Source: Rhodocyclaceae bacterium
GTDB taxonomy: Bacteria; Pseudomonadota; Gammaproteobacteria; Burkholderiales; Rhodocyclaceae
Direction: 5' to 3'
Assembly: GCA_018262875.1 (NCBI GenBank)
Contig: JADFDL010000031.1
Location: 1-10,181, forward strand
DNA: 10,181 nt
Positions 2,599 through 9,927 of the stretch are shown here, piece by piece (position 1 is the first letter of the stretch; each line of letters starts with the position of its first letter). A model generated the notes under the pieces. The model saw nothing but the letters and a program-made list of their open reading frames with translations, made no database searches and was not told the origin of the DNA. Made by a program: the position numbers and the translations under genes.

Positions 2599-2660
2599 TG
2601 GATCGGAGCGGGCAGGACCCGGTGCCGGTGGCCGCACCCCCGCGGCGATTCCGAACTGGT

Positions 2661-2849
2661 CCGTTCCAGGCCGGTATCCGGGCTCGCAAGTCTTGATCCG
2701 CCGCCTTCCCGGGCTTTCGCCCAGTGGCTGTGTGACGGACCCGCACTCGCTTACCGTTGCGGGGGCAGCTGAGGAATTGCCGATCGGTTTCGGCGCACCT
2801 CATTCCCGTTTAACCCGCCGGCGGAAAACCGGCGGAGCACCTTGAACAG
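2661..2849 (-). ncRNA. Cobalamin (AdoCbl-class) riboswitch aptamer
   Basis: The minus strand carries the hallmark elements of the cobalamin riboswitch in the right order. A P1 arm CTGTTC (2844-2849) is followed by GGTGC with a Pro/Gly-codon-like GC hairpin (2817-2840), then AACGGGAAT and a second GGTGC. Next come the B12 box GCTGCCCCCGCAACGGTAAG (2750-2769), GTCACACAGCCACTGGGC, CCCGGGAAGGCGG, and the closing GAGCCCGGATACCGGCC. The 3' arm GAACGG (2661-2666) pairs with CTGTTC to close P1 over 6 bp including one G-U. It should bind B12 and switch off btuB-btuC when cobalamin is plentiful. The short overlapping open frames here are meaningless. Confidence 0.95.
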
Positions 2850-2881
2850 GATGCCGCGTGGAAAAACACACGGCGAAACGG

Positions 2882-2999: not shown

Positions 3000-3191
3000 A
3001 TGGACCGGGACCTCTTCGCGCTCGAAGAACGCATCGAGCAATTCATTTCGCTGTGCCAGAACCTGCGCACCGAGAATCAGGAACTGCGCACGCGCGTGGC
3101 CGGTCTCGAGGTCGAGCGCGGCCGCCTCAATGAAAAAATCGAGACGGCCTGCACCCGCCTGGAATCCCTCATGGAGCGGATACCCGAGTGA
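3000..3191 (+). CDS. zapB: ZapB-like short coiled-coil cell-division protein (TIGR02449 type)
   Basis: This 63-aa, highly charged protein is almost entirely one coiled coil, with heptad-like Leu/Ile spacing from LFALEERIEQFISLCQNL through the ENQELRTRVAGLEVE segment to ESLMERIPE. It belongs to the small coiled-coil family found immediately before zapA in many beta- and gammaproteobacteria. That family is thought to act with ZapA at the division ring, as ZapB does; the exact role here is inferred. The start is fixed at ATG 3000 because an in-frame TAG lies four codons upstream (2988-2990). No Shine-Dalgarno precedes it, which agrees with a leaderless message. Its TGA overlaps the GTG of zapA by 4 nt (GTGA), so the two are coupled. 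Confidence 0.85.
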   Translation: MDRDLFALEERIEQFISLCQNLRTENQELRTRVAGLEVERGRLNEKIETACTRLESLMERIPE

Positions 3192-3499
3192 GCAAGAAGG
3201 AAGCCAACACTCTCGACATCGTCCTCATGGGCCGCGAATACCGCGTCGCCTGCGCGCCGGAAGAGCGCGAGGCCCTGCAAAGCGCGGTGGTCTTCGTCGA
3301 CGAGAAGATGCGTGAAATCGGCGAAAAGACCAAATCCACCGGCGAACGCCTGGCCGTCATGACGGCGCTCAACCTCGCCCACGAACTGCTCTCCATCAAG
3401 CTGCCCGGCGGCTTTGACATGCAGGAGTTCCGGCGTAGAATCGGTTCCATGCAGGCGCGGCTCGACGAAGCGATGGCCAGCCAGGAACAGTTGTTCTAG
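3188..3499 (+). CDS. zapA: Cell division protein ZapA
   Basis: This 103-aa cytosolic protein binds FtsZ and promotes bundling of Z-ring filaments. The ZapA N-terminal globular motif is clear: LDIVLMGREYRVACAPEE, then a helix with VVFVDEKMREI, then RLAVMTALNLAHELL, a very conserved ZapA segment. A C-terminal coiled coil follows (MQEFRRRIGSMQARLDEAM). Length matches the family. The start is GTG at 3188, overlapping the previous stop by 4 nt, so translation probably depends on the upstream gene. The 6S RNA gene begins about 30 nt after the stop, a linkage conserved in many proteobacteria. Confidence 0.95.
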   Translation: MSKKEANTLDIVLMGREYRVACAPEEREALQSAVVFVDEKMREIGEKTKSTGERLAVMTALNLAHELLSIKLPGGFDMQEFRRRIGSMQARLDEAMASQEQLF

Positions 3500-3530: not shown

Positions 3531-3719
3531 AATTCCCCTGCGGTGTTCGCCAAGGCCAACCATTCCTTGAACCGATATGTTGGCATTGGCTGCGGACCAT
3601 GGCGTCACCTTTGTGAGCGTCCCTCATTCGTGAGCCGGACGCACCTGCGGTGACCGGAAAGCGGCCACTCTGGACCTCAGGTTCAGGATGCCGGCCTAGC
3701 GGCACAGGCGGGGGATCCC
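3531..3719 (+). ncRNA. ssrS: 6S RNA (regulator of sigma-70 RNA polymerase)
   Basis: 6S RNA mimics an open promoter and sequesters housekeeping RNA polymerase holoenzyme in stationary phase. The 5' part (CCCCTGCGGTGTTCGCC, then CCTTGAACCGATAT) and the 3' end (GGCGGGGGATCCC) match the E. coli 6S pattern of CUCUGAGAUGUUCGC, CCUGAGCCGAUAU and CAUCUCGGAGAUUCC. Folding supports this. TCCCCTGC (3534-3541) pairs with GCGGGGGA (3708-3715). CCTTGAACC (3565-3573) pairs with GGTTCAGG (3680-3687) around one bulge. GCGTCCCTCA (3617-3626) forms an apical hairpin with TGAGCCGGACGC (3631-3642). Length is about 189 nt against 184 in E. coli. Location directly after zapA is the conserved position. No convincing own promoter is visible, so it may be processed from the zapA transcript. 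Exact ends are estimates. Confidence 0.92.
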
Positions 3720-3765: not shown

Positions 3766-4232
<467 letters not shown>

Positions 4233-4236
<4 letters not shown>

Positions 4237-5039
4237 GCTTCGATCCCTGGTGGCTGTCCTACCCGCTGCTCGGCGCCTTCGCCGGCTTCATCGCCGGACT
4301 GTTCGGCGTCGGCGGCGGGCTGACGCTGGTGCCGATCCTTTTCATGCTGTACTCCGCGCAGCAGTTTCCGCTGGAGCACGTCATGCATCTCGCGCTGGGC
4401 ACCTCGATGGCTACCATCGTGTTCACCTCGATCTCCAGCATGCGCGCCCATCACGGCCACGGCGCGGTACGCTGGGAAATCGTGCGCGGCCTGGCGCCGG
4501 GGCTGGTCGCCGGCACGCTCGCCGGCACCGCTCTGGCAAGTCTGATTCCGACGCGGCCGCTGGCCATCGTCTTCGTCTGCATCGTGTATTACGCCTCGGC
4601 GCAGATGATGCTCGACTTCAAGCCGAAGCCGCACCGGCAGATGCCGGGCAAGACCGGCATGCTGGCGGCGGGCGGCCTCATCGGCGTCCTCTCCAGCCTG
4701 GTATCGGCCGGCGGCGGCTTCATGTCGATCCCGTTCATGGTGTTCTGCAACGTGGTCATCCACCAGGCGGTGGGCACGTCCGCCGCCCTGGGCTTCCCGA
4801 TCGCCGTTGCCGGCAGCGTCGGCTACCTCGTCGCCGGCTGGAACACCGCCGGCCTGCCGGCCTGGTCACTCGGCTATGTCTATCTGCCGGGTCTGGTCGG
4901 CGTGGCGGCGATGACCATGCTCATCGCGCCGCTCGGCGCGAAGACGGCACACCGGCTGCCGGTGAAGCAGTTGAAGCGCGCCTTCGGCGGCTTCCTCGCC
5001 CTCCTGGGGACGAAGATGCTGCACGGCCTCCTGGGTTGA
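4233..5039 (+). CDS. TauE/SafE-family membrane transporter (sulfite exporter type)
   Basis: This 268-aa integral membrane protein has about eight hydrophobic segments arranged as two homologous halves. Each half holds a Gly-rich family motif: AGLFGVGGGLTLVPIL near residue 23 and LVSAGGGFMSIPFMV near residue 155. LGTSMATIVFTSISSMRAHH and VGTSAALGFPIAVAGSVGYL are the matching second motifs. TauE/SafE proteins export sulfite, sulfoacetate or related organosulfur anions, but substrates vary and cannot be read from sequence. Start is ATG 4233, overlapping the EVE-domain stop, so it is translated in the same operon. It converges with the dsrE-like gene with no base between the two stop codons and no terminator visible. 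The sulfur-related neighbour is suggestive only. Confidence 0.92.
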
Positions 5040-5495
5040 TCAGGGCTTGAGGTAGGCAAAACCCTCCTGCGACTGCAGGCGGCCGATTTCCGCTACGCCG
5101 GACGGCACGATCTTCGCTTCCGGGTGCACCCTGCTCTTGTCGATGTTGCGGCCCTTGAGGGTGAATTCGCAGACGCGGAACTCGACGCCTTTCATGGAGA
5201 GATCGTCGACCGCGGCATCGTAGGGATTGCCGTTCTTGTCCTTGGCGCCTTCGAGCAGGAAGTCGATGCCCCTGAAGTGGGTGACGACGACGATTTTCGC
5301 CGTCGGATCGGCGCTCAGGTGGTTGCGGATGTTGCGCAAGCCGTCGGTGGCCTGCTCCAGTCCGCCATTGATGTGGTAGATGACCTTGTTGGGTTGATCG
5401 GCCTTGCCTCCTGCCTGGGTGCCTCCCGCGGCATAGGCCACGGATGCAAACAGCGCCACGATGGCCAGAAGGGTGAATCGGGCAATGCTTTTCAT
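5040..5495 (-). CDS. Secreted DsrE-family protein
   Basis: This 151-aa protein has a clear signal peptide (basic MKSIAR, hydrophobic core, AYA cleavage at about 20-22), so the mature protein of about 129 residues should be periplasmic. The rest resembles the DsrE/DsrF fold: strand KVIYHING (37-44), a long helix with LRNIRNHLSADP, strand AKIVVVTHFRGIDFLL, strand VEFRVCEFTLKGRNI, then PEAKIVPSGVAEIGRL and the C-terminal GFAYLKP. It has one cysteine, Cys109, at the position where DsrE-type proteins often carry a reactive thiol. Cytosolic relatives relay sulfur, but the role of exported members is largely unknown. AGGAG lies 8 nt before the ATG. It is divergent from the sigma-factor operon, and its promoter has the same ECF-type element. 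Its mature part resembles the periplasmic domain of the anti-sigma factor at 6172-6873. Confidence 0.88.
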   Translation of the reverse strand: MKSIARFTLLAIVALFASVAYAAGGTQAGGKADQPNKVIYHINGGLEQATDGLRNIRNHLSADPTAKIVVVTHFRGIDFLLEGAKDKNGNPYDAAVDDLSMKGVEFRVCEFTLKGRNIDKSRVHPEAKIVPSGVAEIGRLQSQEGFAYLKP

Positions 5496-5548
5496 GGGGA
5501 TTCTCCTGTTCTTGTAGTGGTTTTCCCGCCATCCGGCGGCATGAACAA

Positions 5549-5574
5549 GACGAAGCAGGCAGCCGAAATATTCC
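5549..5574 (-). promoter_or_regulatory. ECF-type promoter of the secreted DsrE gene
   Basis: On the minus strand GGAATAT (5568-5574) is followed after exactly 15 bp by CGTC (5549-5552). This is the same arrangement as the opposite-strand element before the sigma gene. Transcription would begin near 5542, giving a leader of about 45 nt. A GGAA(T/C)-type -35 with a CGTC-like -10 is typical of ECF sigma factors. Recognition by the adjacent sigma factor is inferred. Confidence 0.65.
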
Positions 5575-5585
5575 GGTTCCGCCAG

Positions 5586-5611
5586 GGAATAATCCGGCCG
5601 GCCGCTGCGTC
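5586..5611 (+). promoter_or_regulatory. ECF-type promoter of the sigma/anti-sigma operon (probable autoregulation)
   Basis: GGAATAA (5586-5592) is followed after 15 bp by CGTC (5608-5611). Transcription would begin near 5618, just before the GGAGG at 5623-5627. This places the ATG at 5615 at or upstream of the message start and favours ATG 5636. The element matches the divergent one at 5549-5574 in both boxes and spacing. Confidence 0.7.
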
Positions 5612-5635
5612 ACAATGAAACTGGAGGAAAAGCCG

Positions 5636-6175
5636 ATGCAATGGTTGCAGTCGCGGGTGCAGCGCGAACTGGCGGGGCAGATCGAAGCGAGCCGCGGCCG
5701 GCTCTATCGCCTGGCCTTCGCCTGGTGCCACGATACGACCCTGGCCGACGACCTTGCCCAGGAAACCCTGTCGCGCGGTCTCGCCCGGCTCGAACAGTTG
5801 CGCGAACCGGAGCGGCTCATGAGTTGGCTGTTCGCGATTCTCAACCGCTGCTGGATCGATCATCTGCGCCGCCGGCATGAGGAGGTTGACGACGAAGTGC
5901 TCGCCGAAATGCCGTCGGATCTCCCCGGGCCGGAGGGTTATGCCGAACGGCAGGAGGCGGTCATACGGGTGCGCACCGCCATCGCAGCCTTGCCGCTCGG
6001 ACAGCGCCAGGTGGTCACCCTGGTCGACCTGGAAGAGTTTTCCTACGCGGAAGTCGCCGACATCATGGCGATTCCGATCGGCACCGTCATGAGCCGGCTG
6101 TGCCGCGCGCGCGAGGCCCTGCGCGGACTGCTGAAACCGGCCGCGGCCGAACCGCGCCTGAGGAGCGTGAAATGA
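5636..6175 (+). CDS. ECF-family RNA polymerase sigma factor
   Basis: This is a 179-aa extracytoplasmic-function sigma factor with regions 2 and 4 only. Region 2 spans about 20-80: LYRLAFAWCHDTTLADDLAQ, ETLSRGLARLEQL, MSWLFAILNRCWIDHLRRR. A short acidic linker (EEVDDEVLAEMPSDLPGPEG) follows. Region 4 spans about 115-170, with ALPLGQRQVVTLVDLEEFSYAEVADIM and the helix-turn-helix IPIGTVMSRLCRAREALRGLL. I choose ATG 5636, which has GGAGG 8 nt upstream, rather than ATG 5615, which would add seven residues, lacks a ribosome site and lies at the predicted transcription start. Its TGA overlaps the anti-sigma ATG by 4 nt. It probably drives its own operon and the divergent dsrE-like gene. Fold and class are certain; the ECF subgroup is not assigned. 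Confidence 0.95.
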   Translation: MQWLQSRVQRELAGQIEASRGRLYRLAFAWCHDTTLADDLAQETLSRGLARLEQLREPERLMSWLFAILNRCWIDHLRRRHEEVDDEVLAEMPSDLPGPEGYAERQEAVIRVRTAIAALPLGQRQVVTLVDLEEFSYAEVADIMAIPIGTVMSRLCRAREALRGLLKPAAAEPRLRSVK

Positions 6176-6873
6176 ACGACGCACGAAAAAATTTCTCCGA
6201 CGAAAGCCTGAATGCCTTCGTCGACAACCAGCTCGGCGCCCAGGAGCGCGAGGAAATACTCGCCGCCATCGCCGAGGATGCCGACCTGAGCCGGCGCCTG
6301 TGCGCGCTGCGCTCCACCAAGGAACTGGTGCGCCATGCCTATGGCCAGGTGCCGGCTGTCGGCAGTACGCGGGATCGCCGCCTCCCCTTGTGGAGCGGCG
6401 CCCTGGCGGCAGGCGTGGCGCTGGTTGCCGGCGTGCTGATCGGCTGGCAGGGGCATCGCGCGGCCGACACGTCAGCGTCGAAGTCATTGCTGGCCTGGGC
6501 CGGAAGTTTCTTTGCCGCCCAGCCGACGCGGGTGTTGCTGCATCTGGACAGTTCGCAGGCCGAACACATGGAAGAGGCGCTGGATATGGTCGAAGCCTAT
6601 CTGGCCAAGGCCGGCCACGCCCGGGTGGAGGTCGTGGTCAATAACTCCGGTCTCGATCTGCTGCGCCAGGAAACCACGCCCCACGCGGCGCGTATCGCGG
6701 CGCTCGCCGCACGCCACGAAATGCTGGCCTTCGTCGCCTGCGGCAACGCCATCGCACGCTATCGCAGTGCGGGTCTGGATGTCACGCTGGTGCCGGAAGC
6801 AAAGGTGGAGCGCACCGCGATCGAACACATCGTCGACCGGGTGCGCCAGGGCTGGACTTACCTGAAGATCTGA
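6172..6873 (+). CDS. Transmembrane anti-sigma factor with periplasmic DsrE-like sensor domain
   Basis: This 233-aa protein starts at ATG 6172 with AGGAG 6 nt upstream and overlaps the sigma stop (ATGA). Residues 8-57 (DESLNAFVDNQLGAQEREEI, then ARLCALR-like helices) resemble the N-terminal sigma-binding region of anti-sigma factors. The usual zinc motif HxxxCxxC is absent; only Cys44 lies here. One membrane helix follows (about 73-92, LWSGALAAGVALVAGVLIGW), after a basic RDRR, so the C-terminus should be periplasmic. Residues 120-233 look like a DsrE/DsrF-type domain: RVLLHLDSS, VEVVVNNSGLDLL, MLAFVACGNAIARYRSAGL, VTLVPEAKVE and the end GWTYLKI. Cys190, the PEAK motif and the end match the secreted DsrE protein next door. 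It should hold the sigma factor at the membrane until a periplasmic signal releases it. Anti-sigma function is inferred from operon position and topology. Confidence 0.85.
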   Translation: MNDARKNFSDESLNAFVDNQLGAQEREEILAAIAEDADLSRRLCALRSTKELVRHAYGQVPAVGSTRDRRLPLWSGALAAGVALVAGVLIGWQGHRAADTSASKSLLAWAGSFFAAQPTRVLLHLDSSQAEHMEEALDMVEAYLAKAGHARVEVVVNNSGLDLLRQETTPHAARIAALAARHEMLAFVACGNAIARYRSAGLDVTLVPEAKVERTAIEHIVDRVRQGWTYLKI

Positions 6874-7013
6874 ACGGAACCGGGCGGGGTCGGATCGGCC
6901 GCAAAGCCGATGCCGGAAAAGGCGGTGACCAGGCAGAGGGCCACGAAGGCGGCCAGCACCTTGGCCTTGTGCTTCCACGGGCTGATCGGGTTTCTCCGGG
7001 TTTCATGACGCAT
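6858..7013 (-). CDS. 51-aa exported or membrane-anchored mini-protein, family unknown
   Basis: I do not recognise this protein. It begins at ATG 7013 with a very strong AGGAGGAGG (7019-7027) 5 nt upstream, which is the main reason to believe it is translated. A basic N-terminus (MRHETRRNPISPWKHKAK) is followed by a hydrophobic segment VLAAFVALCLVTAFSGIGF and the short tail AADPTPPGSVQIFR. This is either a signal peptide with cleavage near GFA, leaving only about 12-13 residues, or a single membrane anchor with a short periplasmic tail. Its last 16 nt overlap the 3' end of the anti-sigma gene in antisense. It follows the malonate genes on the same strand after a 113-nt gap, and it could have its own promoter at 7101-7130. 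Codon third positions look like neighbouring genes. Confidence 0.65.
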   Translation of the reverse strand: MRHETRRNPISPWKHKAKVLAAFVALCLVTAFSGIGFAADPTPPGSVQIFR

Positions 7014-7042
7014 GGCAACCTCCTCCTTTTGCTACCTGCAAC

Positions 7043-7100: not shown

Positions 7101-7130
7101 ATTATTTGATATTCAAATAAAACGGGTCAG
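7101..7130 (-). promoter_or_regulatory. Possible promoter with AT-rich palindromic operator
   Basis: On the minus strand CTGACC (7125-7130) and AATAAT (7101-7106) are separated by 18 bp and match sigma-70 boxes at four and five of six positions. A 19-bp palindrome, TTATTTGA-TAT-TCAAATAA (7102-7120), covers the -10 box and spacer and has perfect 8-nt arms. It is conspicuously AT-rich in GC-rich surroundings. The -35 box overlaps the stop of the CoA-ligase gene. It would drive the 51-aa gene with a leader of about 80 nt. A repressor site is a reasonable guess, but the regulator is unknown. Confidence 0.45.
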
Positions 7131-8629
7131 CCGGAAAAACGTTGACGCAGCAGGTTCTTCTGCACCTTGCCCATGGCGTTGCGCGGCAGGTCGTCCACGA
7201 AATGCACGGCCTTCGGCACCTTGAAGCCGGCCATGCGGCCCTTCAGCGCGGCGACAATGCCCTCGCCCGTGAGGCCGGCGCCCTCCCGGCCGCGCACCAC
7301 CACGGCGGTCACCGCTTCGCCGAAGTCCGGGTGCGGCAGGCCGATCACGGCGGATTCGGCCACGCCGGGCAGGGCGTCGATGGCCTCCTCGATCTCCTTC
7401 GGGTAGACGTTCAGCCCGCCGCTGATGATGAGGTCCTTGTCGCGGCCGATGATGGCAAGGTAACCCTCTGAGTCGAAGCGGCCCATGTCGCCGGTGCGGA
7501 AGAAGCCGTCCGGCGTGAATTCCTCCCGCGTCTTCTCCGGCATCTGCCAGTAGCCGGCGAAGACATTGTCGCCGCGCACCTGGATGTGGCCGATTTCGCC
7601 AGCCGGCAGGGGCGCGTCGTCATCCCCCACCACGCGCACGTCCGTGCCCGGCAGGGGGAAGCCGACCGTGCCGCCGCGCCGCTCGCCCTCGAGCGGGTTG
7701 GAGGTGAACATGCCGCCCTCGGTCATGCCGTAGCGCTCGAGGAGGGTCTGGCCGGTGCGTTCGCGGAACGCACTGAAAGTCTCCGGCAGCAGCGGCGCCG
7801 AGCCGGAGATGAACAGGCGCATGTGGGCGACGGCTTCGCGCGTCAGGCCCTTTTCCTGCAGCAGCCGCACGTAATAGGTCGGCACGCCCATGAACACCGT
7901 CGCCTCCTGCATCAGCCGCAACGCGCGCGATGCATCGAACTTCGGCTCGAACAGCATCGGACTGCCGTTGAGCAACGCGCAGTGCGTGGCGACGAAGAGG
8001 CCGTGCACGTGAAAAGTCGGCAGCATGTGCAGCAGCACGTCGCCGGGGCGGAAGCCCCAGTATTTGTGCAGCACCAGCCCGTTGGCGGCCAGGTTGCGGT
8101 GGGTGAGCATCGCCCCCTTCGAGCGGCCGGTGGTGCCGGAGGTGTAGACGATCGAAGCCAGGTCGCCGTCGGCGCGTTCGACGGTGGCGAACGTCTCGGG
8201 CATCTGCACCGCGGCGGCAGCCAGGCTGCCCTCGCCGCGCGCGCCGAGGTCATGTACCAGCGGCAGGCGGCTGGCCCAGGCCAGTTCCTGCGCCTCCTCC
8301 AGCCGCTCGGGCGCGCAGACGAACAGGCCGGGCCGGGCATCGTCGAGGAAGAAGGCGACCTCGCTGCGCGTATAGGCGGGATTCAGCGGCAGGAAGACGC
8401 AGCCGGCGCGCAGGCAGCCGAGGTAGAGGAAGAGCGCCTCGGCGGATTTCTCCACCTGCGCGGCGACGCGGTCGCCCGGCGCGAGTCCGGCCTCGGCGAG
8501 CAGTGCGCCGTATCGCGCGGACTGACTTTCCAGTTCGGCGTAGCTCAGGCGCCGGCCGTCGGGCAGGATCAGGCAGGGCGCCTCGCCCTCGGCCGGGAAG
8601 CGCGAGGCCAGCAGGCCGTACAGGTTCAT
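7127..8629 (-). CDS. matB: Malonyl-CoA synthetase (MatB-type acyl-CoA ligase)
   Basis: This 500-aa cytosolic ANL-superfamily ligase should convert malonate, ATP and CoA to malonyl-CoA, AMP and pyrophosphate. Motifs seen: the P-loop YTSGTTGRSKG (162-172), MLPTFHVHGLF (202-212), SGSAPL (275-280), ERYGMTEGGM (298-307), GFRTGD-like FFRTGD (376-381), GRDKDLIISGGLNVYPKEIE (395-414), and the catalytic-lysine region NAMGKVQK with Lys488. Length and the MTEGGMFTSNP segment fit MatB better than acetyl-CoA or long-chain synthetases. The start is ATG 8629, which overlaps the stop of the decarboxylase gene by 4 nt (ATGA). A longer open frame extends upstream to 9823 but only as a shadow of that gene. Pairing with malonyl-CoA decarboxylase supports malonate as substrate; methylmalonate is possible too. 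Confidence 0.88.
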   Translation of the reverse strand: MNLYGLLASRFPAEGEAPCLILPDGRRLSYAELESQSARYGALLAEAGLAPGDRVAAQVEKSAEALFLYLGCLRAGCVFLPLNPAYTRSEVAFFLDDARPGLFVCAPERLEEAQELAWASRLPLVHDLGARGEGSLAAAAVQMPETFATVERADGDLASIVYTSGTTGRSKGAMLTHRNLAANGLVLHKYWGFRPGDVLLHMLPTFHVHGLFVATHCALLNGSPMLFEPKFDASRALRLMQEATVFMGVPTYYVRLLQEKGLTREAVAHMRLFISGSAPLLPETFSAFRERTGQTLLERYGMTEGGMFTSNPLEGERRGGTVGFPLPGTDVRVVGDDDAPLPAGEIGHIQVRGDNVFAGYWQMPEKTREEFTPDGFFRTGDMGRFDSEGYLAIIGRDKDLIISGGLNVYPKEIEEAIDALPGVAESAVIGLPHPDFGEAVTAVVVRGREGAGLTGEGIVAALKGRMAGFKVPKAVHFVDDLPRNAMGKVQKNLLRQRFSG

Positions 8630-9927
8630 GCCTTGGCCAGCCGGCGGATGGCGGCCGTGGCGGCGATGCGGTCCTCGCCGACGAAGGCTTCGACGTTCTG
8701 CTCGATCTCGTCGGGGTCGTACAGGTAGTTCACCATCAGGCCGCAGGACTGCCTGAAGCCCTTGGCCGAGGCATCCGCCAGGAAATCGATGCGCTCGATG
8801 CGGGCGCCGTTGCCGAGGTGGAAGCGCGCCACCGGGTCGAAGGGACGGCCGTTCTGGCGGACGGCGTAGAGGTAGCGGGCGGCGAGGGCCTCGAGCGGAT
8901 CGCGCAGGCGGCGCGCCAGGGCCTTGTCCTGCGCCCAGCCGCCCGACTGCAGCTGGGCCAGCGTGAAGCCGAGCCCCTCGAGGGCTTCCGGCGTGCGCTT
9001 CAGCCAGGCGCAGAACTGCGGCAGCGGCGACAGCGTGGCGAAGGTCTTCAGCTGCGGGAAGTCGCGCTTCAGGTCGTCGATGACGCGCTTCAGCAGGAAG
9101 TTGCCGAAGGTGACGCCGCGCAGGCCGGCCTGGGTATTGGAGATCGAGTAGAAGATCGCCGTGTCGGCGCGATCGGCCTCCAGCACCGGGGCGTGCTCGT
9201 CGAGCAGCGCCTGGATGTTGCCGGAAAGCTCTTTCGTCAGCGCCACCTCGACGAAGATCAGTGGTTCGGCCGGCATGCGCGGGTGGAAGAAGGCGTACAG
9301 GCGGCGGTCGGAACCGAGGCGGTTCCTCAGGTCGCTCCAGGAGCGGATCTCGTGCACCGCCTCGTACTGGATCAGCTTTTCCAGCAGCGAGGCGGGAGAG
9401 TTCCAGGTGATGCGCTGCAATTCGAGGAAGCCGACGTCGAACCAGGCGGTCAGGCGCGACTCCAGCTCGCGGTCGAGCACCGCCAGCTCCTCGTCCTTCT
9501 CCAGAAAACGCAGCAGGTCGGCGCGCAGGTCGACGAGGAATTTCACGCCCTGCGGCAGGGCGTTGAATTGGGTCAGGATGCGGATGCGCGAGGAGCGCAG
9601 GGCGGCGCGCAGGTCGGCCTCGGCGTCCCACTGGCCGGGCGTGCCGGCCGCCGCCTGGTAGGCACGGTGCGCGGCGTCCACCTTCGCCGGCTCGGGGCCG
9701 AAGTCGAGGGCGATGCGCCGCAGGAACTCGTGGCGGCCGGCGTCGTCGAGGCCGAGGTAGGTCTCGCCCAGCTTCGCCGCCCGGCCGCGCGCGGCGACCT
9801 CGCCGCCTGTGCCGGCGGCGCATTCCTGCAGTTGCCGGCGCAATTGCGCCAGCAGCTTCGGCGTCATGGGCTGGCGTCCGGGCTTGCCGCCGACCAGGGA
9901 TTTGACGCGCCTGAGAATGCCTTCCAT
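8626..9927 (-). CDS. matA: Malonyl-CoA decarboxylase
   Basis: This 433-aa MCD-family enzyme decarboxylates malonyl-CoA to acetyl-CoA and CO2. An N-terminal helical oligomerisation region (about 25-150) is followed by the acetyltransferase-like catalytic domain. Conserved segments include ITWNSPASLLEKLIQYEAVH (173-192), FFHPRMPAEPLIFVEVAL (213-230), FYSISNTQAGLRGVTFGNFL (259-278), FATLSPLPQF (296-305), FHLGNGARIERI (369-380, with the His expected in the active site) and SCGLMVNYLY (394-403). Ser261 or Ser263 in the SISNTQ segment corresponds to the region of the catalytic Ser. Length agrees with bacterial MatA. AGGAGG lies 6 nt before ATG 9927 and overlaps the preceding gene's stop region. With matB it forms a malonate to acetyl-CoA pathway. 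No N-terminal targeting signal is present. Confidence 0.93.
   Translation of the reverse strand: MEGILRRVKSLVGGKPGRQPMTPKLLAQLRRQLQECAAGTGGEVAARGRAAKLGETYLGLDDAGRHEFLRRIALDFGPEPAKVDAAHRAYQAAAGTPGQWDAEADLRAALRSSRIRILTQFNALPQGVKFLVDLRADLLRFLEKDEELAVLDRELESRLTAWFDVGFLELQRITWNSPASLLEKLIQYEAVHEIRSWSDLRNRLGSDRRLYAFFHPRMPAEPLIFVEVALTKELSGNIQALLDEHAPVLEADRADTAIFYSISNTQAGLRGVTFGNFLLKRVIDDLKRDFPQLKTFATLSPLPQFCAWLKRTPEALEGLGFTLAQLQSGGWAQDKALARRLRDPLEALAARYLYAVRQNGRPFDPVARFHLGNGARIERIDFLADASAKGFRQSCGLMVNYLYDPDEIEQNVEAFVGEDRIAATAAIRRLAKA

What the first reader, a model, noticed from the sequence alone, without database searches (positions are those of the whole stretch)
5040..6873. Candidate undescribed sigma/anti-sigma circuit built on DsrE-like periplasmic domains
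An ECF sigma gene overlaps a gene for a one-helix membrane anti-sigma factor whose periplasmic part looks like a DsrE/DsrF-type domain. A secreted DsrE-family protein is encoded divergently. Anti-sigma sensor domains are usually unrelated to DsrE, and I do not recall a described case of this kind. A plausible model is that the periplasmic DsrE-like domain senses a thiol-reactive or sulfur signal through Cys190, frees the sigma factor, and the sigma factor raises the level of the soluble DsrE protein as effector, competitor or feedback element. Topology and gene order are seen directly; the signal and mechanism are inference.
Basis: partly seen in the sequence, partly recalled or inferred. Interest (0 to 1): 0.85.

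Follow-up and report, generated by a model that had tools for sequence, protein, structure and literature searches.

The report
Sulfur-linked sigma switch with DsrE sensor
A bacterial gene switch whose membrane sensor carries a sulfur-carrier-like (DsrE) domain outside the cell membrane, found next to sulfur-oxidation genes in a number of sulfur bacteria, gives a concrete candidate for how such cells sense sulfur compounds.

Summary
An ECF sigma gene (5636-6175; start corrected from 5615) overlaps a gene (6172-6873) for a one-helix anti-sigma whose periplasmic part is a genuine DsrE/MTH1491-type domain, beside a divergent secreted DsrE protein (5040-5495). In all 80 related loci examined the sigma gene is directly upstream. 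Cys190 is invariant in 121 close and 56 diverse homologues, and in the 56 it is the only periplasmic cysteine. New here: the promoter GGAATA-N16-CGTC lies before sigma in 76 of 80 loci and on the opposite strand in 52; the window has both. Of those 52, 43 precede a secreted DsrE gene, 8 precede sulfur genes (soxY, soxC, soxB-like and others) and 1 a glnE-like frame. In some genomes the motif precedes the sox cluster itself, but most sox clusters tested lack it. The promoter matches the published ECF26 consensus; ECF26 sigmas of Sinorhizobium and Starkeya respond to sulfite, but their anti-sigmas are not reported to carry DsrE. Best reading: a sulfur-responsive switch with a one-cysteine DsrE sensor that controls its soluble DsrE partner and, in part of the family, Sox genes. 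Signal, cysteine chemistry and sigma release are inferred. I found no description in the papers searched. New variant of a known kind.

The parts
5636..6175 (+).
   Evidence: Sigma70_r2 and r4_2 over cut-off; directly upstream of the anti-sigma in 80 of 80 loci; the window sigma and those of 21 loci form one clade in a 51-row tree, support 98/97
6172..6873 (+). Membrane anti-sigma factor gene, 233 aa: cytoplasmic helical N-terminal part (residues 1-70), one membrane helix (about 73-99), periplasmic DsrE domain (about 119-233)
   Evidence: Model m662b30cfa3e6, Foldseek and VIA-align, profile search of PDB sequences, hydropathy
6526..6870 (+). DsrE/MTH1491-type periplasmic domain of the anti-sigma
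6739..6741 (+). Codon of Cys190, the only periplasmic cysteine
   Evidence: Cys in 121 of 121 close homologues and 56 of 56 diverse ones; exactly one Cys after the membrane helix in 56 of 56
5040..5495 (-). Secreted soluble DsrE-family protein, 151 aa, Cys109 codon at 5169-5171
   Evidence: PF02635 36.8 bits over cut-off 22.7; Cys conserved in 72 of 73 sequences, one gap, this one included; 58 of the 73 have one Cys in the domain, 14 two, 1 none; aligned with Cys190
5586..5611 (+). Predicted sigma-dependent promoter GGAATA-N16-CGTC of the sigma/anti-sigma operon
   Evidence: Same motif before sigma in 76 of 80 loci, 71 with spacer 16; 300 permuted motifs mean 0.2 loci, maximum 13
5549..5574 (-). 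Predicted sigma-dependent promoter GGAATA-N16-CGTC of the divergent DsrE gene
   Evidence: Opposite-strand motif in 52 of 80 loci; permuted motifs mean 0.13, maximum 10; 43 of the 52 lie within 240 bases of a secreted DsrE domain
4215..5039 (+). TauE/SafE-family putative sulfite exporter (start not settled): neighbour convergent with the DsrE gene, no promoter of this kind found before it
   Evidence: PF01925 178 bits; a relative in 17 of the 20 closest loci and in none of the other 60 at E 1e-3

Best explanation
A sulfur-responsive sigma/anti-sigma switch. The anti-sigma holds the sigma factor at the membrane with its cytoplasmic N-terminal helices. Its periplasmic DsrE-type domain senses a reactive sulfur species made or met during sulfur oxidation (persulfide, thiosulfate/tetrathionate-derived sulfane, or sulfite), most likely by covalent modification of its only cysteine, Cys190. 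That change releases the sigma factor, directly or through proteolysis of the anti-sigma. The freed sigma then transcribes GGAATA-N16-CGTC promoters: its own operon, the secreted DsrE protein and, in some lineages, sox genes. The soluble DsrE protein most likely carries or traps periplasmic sulfane sulfur, which also damps or relays the signal. Shown by sequence: gene order, domain architecture, conserved cysteine, promoter pair, identity of the genes behind it. Inferred: sigma binding, promoter activity, signal, cysteine chemistry, release step, role of the soluble protein.
For: DsrE fold of the sensor. Sigma adjacent in 80 of 80 loci. Exactly one periplasmic Cys, 56 of 56, which argues against an intramolecular disulfide and for persulfide or mixed-disulfide chemistry (inference). 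Promoter motif, chosen by eye in the window and tested on other loci: 76 of 80 forward, 52 of 80 reverse, against 8 hits in the other 943 kb, six of which lie beside a second sigma copy in L026, L034 and L072. Genes after the 52 reverse sites: 43 secreted DsrE, 8 sulfur genes, 1 glnE-like frame; of the 8, SoxY x3 and SoxC x2 pass NCBIfam cut-offs, Sulf_transp passes Pfam's, one is a metallo-beta-lactamase-fold protein over Pfam's cut-off, and the SoxB-like one scores 172 bits against 550. soxX, soxA and soxB follow the anti-sigma in L158, and the motif lies just before soxX in L159. Motif upstream of sox in 9 of 37 anti-sigma-positive genomes against 1 of 39 negative ones, p 0.006. Full-length anti-sigma and SoxY co-occur: 50 of 56 against 97 of 218, p 4e-10. 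The window's own genome has SoxY at 156.5 bits, cut-off 125. Published ECF26 consensus GGAAT(A)/CGTC and sulfite response (PMC6527743, PMC6180224, PMC3511301, passages read).
Against: No expression, binding or mutant data. Single-sequence Pfam score of the sensor is below cut-off. 6 of 56 genomes with a full-length anti-sigma have no SoxY match, and five of these six are at least 93% complete, so Sox is not obligatory. 28 of 37 sox clusters in positive genomes lack the motif on their strand within 3 kb, and one control genome has it before soxX. In the window's own genome the one motif near soxY lies inside what reads as the end of a MoaC-like frame and is probably chance. Away from the locus the motif is barely above background: in six genomes 35 hits, of which 11 belong to the loci themselves, against 18 for the reversed pattern, so a wider regulon is not shown. 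The co-occurrence test does not correct for kinship. 22 of 80 loci showed no DsrE gene nearby by profile, though one of them (L057) has one by tblastn and reading. In eight loci the next gene reads as a beta-propeller, with no obvious sulfur role (family shown for L043 only). Soluble partners are not always one-cysteine: 14 of 73 have two.
Confidence: 0.68

Rival explanations
1. Sulfite switch of the ECF26 type: the DsrE domain binds or reacts with sulfite itself and the circuit is a detoxification response; Sox control is secondary.
For: Same promoter consensus as the ECF26 sigmas that respond to sulfite (passages of PMC6527743, PMC6180224, PMC3511301). SoxC-family genes behind the reverse promoter in Cupriavidus sp. 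BIS7 and Pandoraea terrae. TauE-family putative sulfite exporter next door in 17 of the 20 closest loci. Best match of the window sigma in eight genomes that I chose from the SorT survey is a sigma beside sorA with the same promoter, 44% identity.
Against: Most genes behind the reverse promoter are DsrE proteins, and Sox carriers handle sulfane sulfur rather than sulfite (general knowledge). The tree does not place the SorA-linked sigma closest. No TauE relative in the other 60 loci.
Confidence: 0.35
2. The soluble DsrE protein, not Cys190 chemistry of the sensor alone, is the signal carrier: loaded with sulfur it binds, or passes sulfur to, the related sensor domain, so the switch measures the sulfur load of its own carrier pool.
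For: Sensor and soluble protein are homologous over the whole domain with aligned cysteines. Known DsrE relatives form hetero-oligomers (DsrEFH and TusBCD entries). The soluble gene keeps close linkage although its orientation differs: 47 divergent, 10 downstream, 1 both, 22 none found, of 80.
Against: 22 of 80 loci have no soluble partner found nearby by profile. Complex formation was not tested.
Confidence: 0.3
3. General thiol-stress sensor (metal ions, hypochlorous acid, electrophiles) whose domain merely happens to be of DsrE type.
For: A lone reactive cysteine would react with many agents (inference).
Against: Genes behind the promoter and co-occurrence point to sulfur oxidation; I noticed no metal-efflux or chaperone gene among those named here, but made no systematic search for them.
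Confidence: 0.12
4. The DsrE domain is only a dimerisation or stability module; the signal acts elsewhere, for example through a protease or another periplasmic protein.
For: Many anti-sigmas are cut by regulated proteolysis (general knowledge). 1l1s-type proteins oligomerise (recalled, not tested).
Against: Cys190 is invariant in 121 of 121 and 56 of 56 sequences, stronger than expected of a scaffold.
Confidence: 0.13

Closest known systems
ECF26 sigma/anti-sigma pairs: Sinorhizobium meliloti RpoE1 and RpoE4, Starkeya novella SigE (PMC3511301, PMC6527743, PMC6180224; passages read)
   Same: ECF sigma followed by a one-helix anti-sigma; promoters GGAAT(A)...CGTC; autoregulation (RpoE1, RpoE4); sulfur-oxidation targets; a Lipoprotein_15 protein and a beta-propeller are also linked to them and recur here
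   Different: Their anti-sigma periplasmic part is described as having some similarity to RsiW, not DsrE. The SorA-linked anti-sigma of L154 matches our family only over profile positions 6-97. Secreted DsrE and sox genes as targets are not described in the passages read.
MTH1491/ST0148 branch of the DsrE/DsrF-like fold (PDB 1l1s, 2pd2)
   Same: Fold and sequence of the sensor domain
   Different: Those solved chains are stand-alone domains (111 and 108 residues); here the domain is the periplasmic part of an anti-sigma, with a secreted paralogue
DsrEFH and TusBCD sulfur-relay proteins (PDB 2hy5, 2d1p)
   Same: Fold
   Different: They act in the cytoplasm (recalled; the title of PMC3397948 seen in a search listing); here the domain is predicted periplasmic and regulatory
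Class I anti-sigma factors such as MucA/RseA
   Same: N-terminal helices, single membrane helix, gene overlap with sigma; weak match to MucA (12.5 bits, E 0.82)
   Different: Periplasmic sensor unrelated to those of MucA or RseA (recalled)

Membership tests
ECF sigma factors | Regions 2 and 4 present, short protein | tested here: met
   Pfam r2 and r4_2 over cut-off, 179 aa; TIGR02937 78 bits against 42.9 (run with the longer 186-aa start)
Class I anti-sigma factors | Gene adjacent to its sigma, cytoplasmic N-terminal helical domain, one membrane helix | tested here: met
   80 of 80 loci adjacent; model helices 10-17, 23-35, 37-57 and 75-99
Class I anti-sigma factors | Recognisable anti-sigma domain by profile | tested here: inconclusive
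   zf-HC2 12.5 bits, below cut-off; MucA 12.5 bits, E 0.82; but the family profile finds the N-terminal part of other ECF-linked anti-sigmas, e.g. L154 E 2.3e-9
Class I anti-sigma factors | Physical binding and inhibition of the sigma | not testable with these tools
   Needs two-hybrid or in vitro transcription
DsrE/DsrF-like domain (PF02635) | Fold of the family | tested here: met
DsrE/DsrF-like domain (PF02635) | Sequence relation to family members | tested here: met
   Profile against 1l1s E 5.9e-18. The window's single sequence misses Pfam's cut-off, 20.9 against 22.7; 3 of the 120 homologues listed carry a precomputed PF02635
DsrE/DsrF-like domain (PF02635) | Conserved family cysteine | tested here: met
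   Cys190 in 56 of 56, aligned with Cys109 of the soluble protein
DsrE/DsrF-like domain (PF02635) | Sulfurtransferase or sulfur-carrier activity | not testable with these tools
   Biochemistry needed
ECF26 group | Promoter consensus GGAAT(A)/CGTC | tested here: met
   76 of 80 loci; published consensus
ECF26 group | Sigma sequence falls in the group | tested here: inconclusive
   Best hit in eight genomes chosen from the SorT survey is the SorA-linked sigma, 44% identity, but the tree does not place it closest and holds no labelled ECF26 reference; the classification paper is not held
ECF26 group | Anti-sigma periplasmic domain resembling RsiW, as reported for S. meliloti | tested here: not met
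   The domain here is DsrE; no comparison with RsiW itself was made; hence not filed as a full ECF26 member

The most novel reading that the evidence does not exclude
A closed sulfur-relay circuit: secreted DsrE carriers load sulfane sulfur in the periplasm and hand it to the homologous one-cysteine DsrE domain of the membrane anti-sigma, so the cell reads the sulfur load of its own carrier pool and sets Sox and carrier expression accordingly. Sensor and main regulated product would be paralogues exchanging the signal atom.
Probability: 0.28. Interest if true: 0.88.

Novelty: new variant of a known kind. Interest (0 to 1): 0.72.

Why it matters
How sulfur-responsive ECF systems sense their signal is stated as open by the authors of the sulfite work ('by an as yet unknown mechanism', PMC6527743, passage read). 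This family offers a sensor with a known fold, one invariant periplasmic cysteine, a defined promoter and nearby targets, so the question becomes directly testable by one point mutation and a reporter. It would add DsrE, known from sulfur relay, to the list of signal-receiving domains, and give a candidate regulator of Sox genes in some sulfur-oxidising Beta- and Gammaproteobacteria.

Tried and rejected
Chance gene order or misread frame: rejected (80 of 80 loci; cysteine invariant). DsrE resemblance as wishful reading: rejected. The TauE gene as a sigma target: not supported; it converges on the DsrE gene, no motif was found before it, and it has a relative in only 17 of 80 loci, all among the 20 closest. 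The third motif in the window at 816 + lies inside the TonB-receptor gene with spacer 17 and was taken as chance.

Regulon scans. Own genome: 14 hits in 2.0 Mb, three of them in the window, against 3 for the reversed control pattern. Of the 11 outside the window I read the frames after five: L083, L087, L092 and L095 (I recognised no sulfur gene by eye) and L096 near soxY, which sits in a MoaC-like frame; six were not read. Six named genomes: 35 hits against 18 for the reversed pattern; 11 belong to the sigma loci, and of the other 24 I read eight. Two of the eight are suggestive: one before a Lipoprotein_15 protein in Pandoraea terrae and one before a YeiH-type putative sulfate exporter in Sulfuricella sp. 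T08, the latter 77.5 bits against NCBIfam's cut-off of 232.6 but over Pfam's cut-off for PF03601. Given the background, neither is a claim.

SorT survey: of the ten SorT-hit regions fetched (three further regions there were anti-sigma/soxY ones), only L154 showed a sorA-linked sigma with the same promoter; two others (L148, L149) held ECF sigmas without it. Phylum survey: in 150 genomes at E 1e-20 only the window's own genome had a full-length match; three others matched from profile position 78 or later, so in this sample the full architecture was not met outside the class.

Literature: ten searches. Those bearing on a DsrE anti-sigma or an ECF/Sox link were (no paper found); one search was on ECF classification. 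None of the listings showed a DsrE anti-sigma. I read passages, not whole papers, of PMC3511301, PMC7406223, PMC2147049, PMC2864759, PMC6527743, PMC6180224 and PMC10880074; the other papers were seen as listings only. The main ECF classification paper (10.1093/nar/gkaa1229) is not held, so a mention there cannot be excluded.

Limits: the 80 loci are the best of 133 confirmed, found by patterns that require SDExLNAF- or GWTY-like words, and many Sulfuritalea loci are near-copies. Of the four loci without a forward motif, L054 and L082 have no sequence upstream of sigma; L053 and L072 do. 'Full-length' in the class survey was my own cut's list (profile from 14 or lower to 227 or higher). In the sox test the positives were 40 of the 47 genomes with a full-length anti-sigma and SoxY over cut-off: G169, G051 and G276 were left out for lack of upstream sequence, and G000, G162, G173 and G273 because their context had already been seen. 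The controls were 40 of 69, taken mostly in score order. Three positives and one control under 1 kb were then dropped. Of the nine positives, a SoxX-like frame directly after the site was seen in L169, L182 and L191 and a SoxY-like one in L196; in the other five my frame reading was not clear. The glnE-like frame was judged by eye. 'Acidiferrobacter-like' is my label for eight loci, two of which bear that name.
Full report
What is there. The window carries, divergently arranged, a secreted DsrE-family gene (5040-5495, minus) and an operon of an ECF sigma gene and a membrane anti-sigma gene whose reading frames overlap as ATGA. I therefore take 5636-6175.

Conservation. The first search found 231 homologues at E 0.01 or less and the profile search 382; 120 of each were listed. 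Cys190 is present in all 121 aligned from the first list, the window's included, and in all 56 of the diverse alignment, where it is the only cysteine after the membrane helix in 56 of 56. Trp228 is invariant in the 56 too; His124 is present in 52. The genome scan gave 133 confirmed loci, of which the best 80 were kept: Rhodocyclales, Sulfuritalea, Thiobacillus, Sulfuricella, Acidiferrobacter, Thiohalobacter, Sedimenticola, Cupriavidus, Pandoraea and unnamed Gammaproteobacteria among them. All 80 have the sigma gene directly upstream, with a gap of at most 105 bases. By an iterated profile, a secreted DsrE gene lies within 4 kb in 58 of 80: divergent 47, downstream 10, both 1; 22 have none found, though tblastn and reading show one more in L057. 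The family cysteine is kept in 72 of 73 soluble sequences, one gap; 58 of the 73 have one cysteine in the domain, 14 two and 1 none. The window sigma and those of 21 sampled loci form one clade in a 51-row tree, support 98/97.

The promoter pair. I picked this motif by eye in the window and tested it on the 80 loci. In the stretch upstream of sigma it occurs in 76 of 80 on the sigma strand (71 with spacer exactly 16) and in 52 of 80 on the other strand (50 with spacer 16). The remaining 943 kb hold 8 hits, six of them beside second sigma copies in L026, L034 and L072. 300 permuted motifs average 0.21 and 0.13 loci, maximum 13 and 10. Two of the four loci without a forward hit simply lack upstream sequence; L053 and L072 do not. 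A recount shows 43 of the 52 reverse sites within 240 bases of a secreted DsrE domain. Of the other nine, eight precede a sulfur-metabolism gene and one (L072) a frame that reads like glnE. The eight are: SoxY in L065, L073 and L075, and SoxC in L068 (Cupriavidus sp. BIS7) and L069 (Pandoraea terrae), all over NCBIfam cut-offs; a SoxB-like protein in L050, 172 bits, well below its cut-off of 550; a metallo-beta-lactamase-fold protein in L042, over Pfam's cut-off, that I take as persulfide-dioxygenase-like; and a Sulf_transp protein in L037, over Pfam's cut-off.

How far the regulon goes. Away from the locus the motif is close to background: 35 hits in six named genomes, 11 of them at the sigma loci, against 18 for the reversed pattern; in the window's own genome 14 hits, three in the window, against 3. 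So a local circuit is well supported and a wide regulon is not.

Link to Sox. In a sample of 274 genomes of the class, 56 have a full-length anti-sigma; 50 of these and 97 of the other 218 have SoxY (odds ratio 10.4, p 4e-10), or 47 and 69 at the curated cut-off (p 1.5e-12). Kinship is not corrected for, and five of the six positive genomes without SoxY are at least 93% complete, so Sox is not obligatory. In L158 the order is sigma, anti-sigma, soxX, a stretch that holds SoxY, soxA, soxB, with SoxX, SoxA and SoxB over cut-offs; in L159 the motif stands just before soxX and a secreted DsrE gene follows soxB. In a direct test the motif stands upstream of the sox cluster, on its strand, in 9 of 37 anti-sigma-positive genomes and 1 of 39 SoxY-bearing genomes without it (p 0.006; permuted motifs average 0.26 of 37, maximum 5); the control's site also precedes soxX. 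So direct Sox control is supported only in part of the family. The window's genome (54% complete) has a SoxY gene over cut-off; its nearby motif hit lies in a MoaC-like frame and is probably chance.

How it most likely works. Shown by sequence: topology, the one-cysteine DsrE sensor, a predicted autoregulatory promoter and a matched promoter for the soluble paralogue. Inferred: the anti-sigma holds the sigma through its N-terminal helices; a reactive sulfur species modifies Cys190; the sigma is freed directly or after proteolysis; the soluble protein carries or traps sulfur and so damps or relays the signal. With no second periplasmic cysteine, a disulfide within the monomer's sensor domain is excluded, which favours persulfidation or a mixed disulfide.

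What is known. ECF26 sigmas RpoE1 and RpoE4 of Sinorhizobium meliloti and SigE of Starkeya novella respond to sulfite or its sources and use -35 GGAAT(A), -10 CGTC (PMC3511301, PMC6527743, PMC6180224; passages read). The S. [quoted passage not shown] the mechanism of release by sulfite is called unknown. L154, with a sorA-linked sigma and the same promoter, has an anti-sigma matching ours only in its N-terminal and membrane part. The present system thus works like an ECF26 sulfur circuit but has a different sensor; whether its sigma belongs to ECF26 was not settled. No description of a DsrE anti-sigma was found in the papers searched, although databases already name some members 'DsrE family protein' or 'transmembrane anti-sigma factor'.

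Verdict. It is a new variant of a known kind, with a testable sensor for an open question.

Noticed in passing
window 2652-2859 (-): Cobalamin riboswitch (RF00174, 113.8 bits) upstream of a TonB-dependent receptor gene (558-2522, minus), so probably a vitamin B12 receptor.
   Followed up: partly
window 3532-3718 (+): 6S RNA (RF00013, 58.7 bits) directly after zapA (3188-3499).
   Followed up: partly
window 7127-9927 (-): Malonyl-CoA decarboxylase gene followed by an AMP-binding (acyl-CoA synthetase-like) gene.
   Followed up: no
L036, L043, L046, L047, L051, L052, L058, L076, just downstream of the anti-sigma: In eight loci a secreted beta-propeller (Lactonase/YVTN) frame follows the anti-sigma gene instead of DsrE (family checked for L043 only); a YVTN propeller is also linked to RpoE1 of Starkeya (passage).
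   Followed up: partly
L104 (Pandoraea terrae), L123 (Sulfuricella sp. T08): Motif sites away from the sigma locus precede a Lipoprotein_15 secreted protein and a YeiH-type putative sulfate exporter; the former resembles the described first gene of the S. meliloti rpoE1 operon. Background hits are common, so either may be chance.
   Followed up: partly
L026, L034, L072: Two sigma/DsrE-anti-sigma pairs lie close together in one locus, suggesting local duplication.
   Followed up: no
window 6869-7015 (-): A short frame on the opposite strand, overlapping the end of the anti-sigma gene, reads like a small secreted peptide; read by eye, not tested.
   Followed up: no
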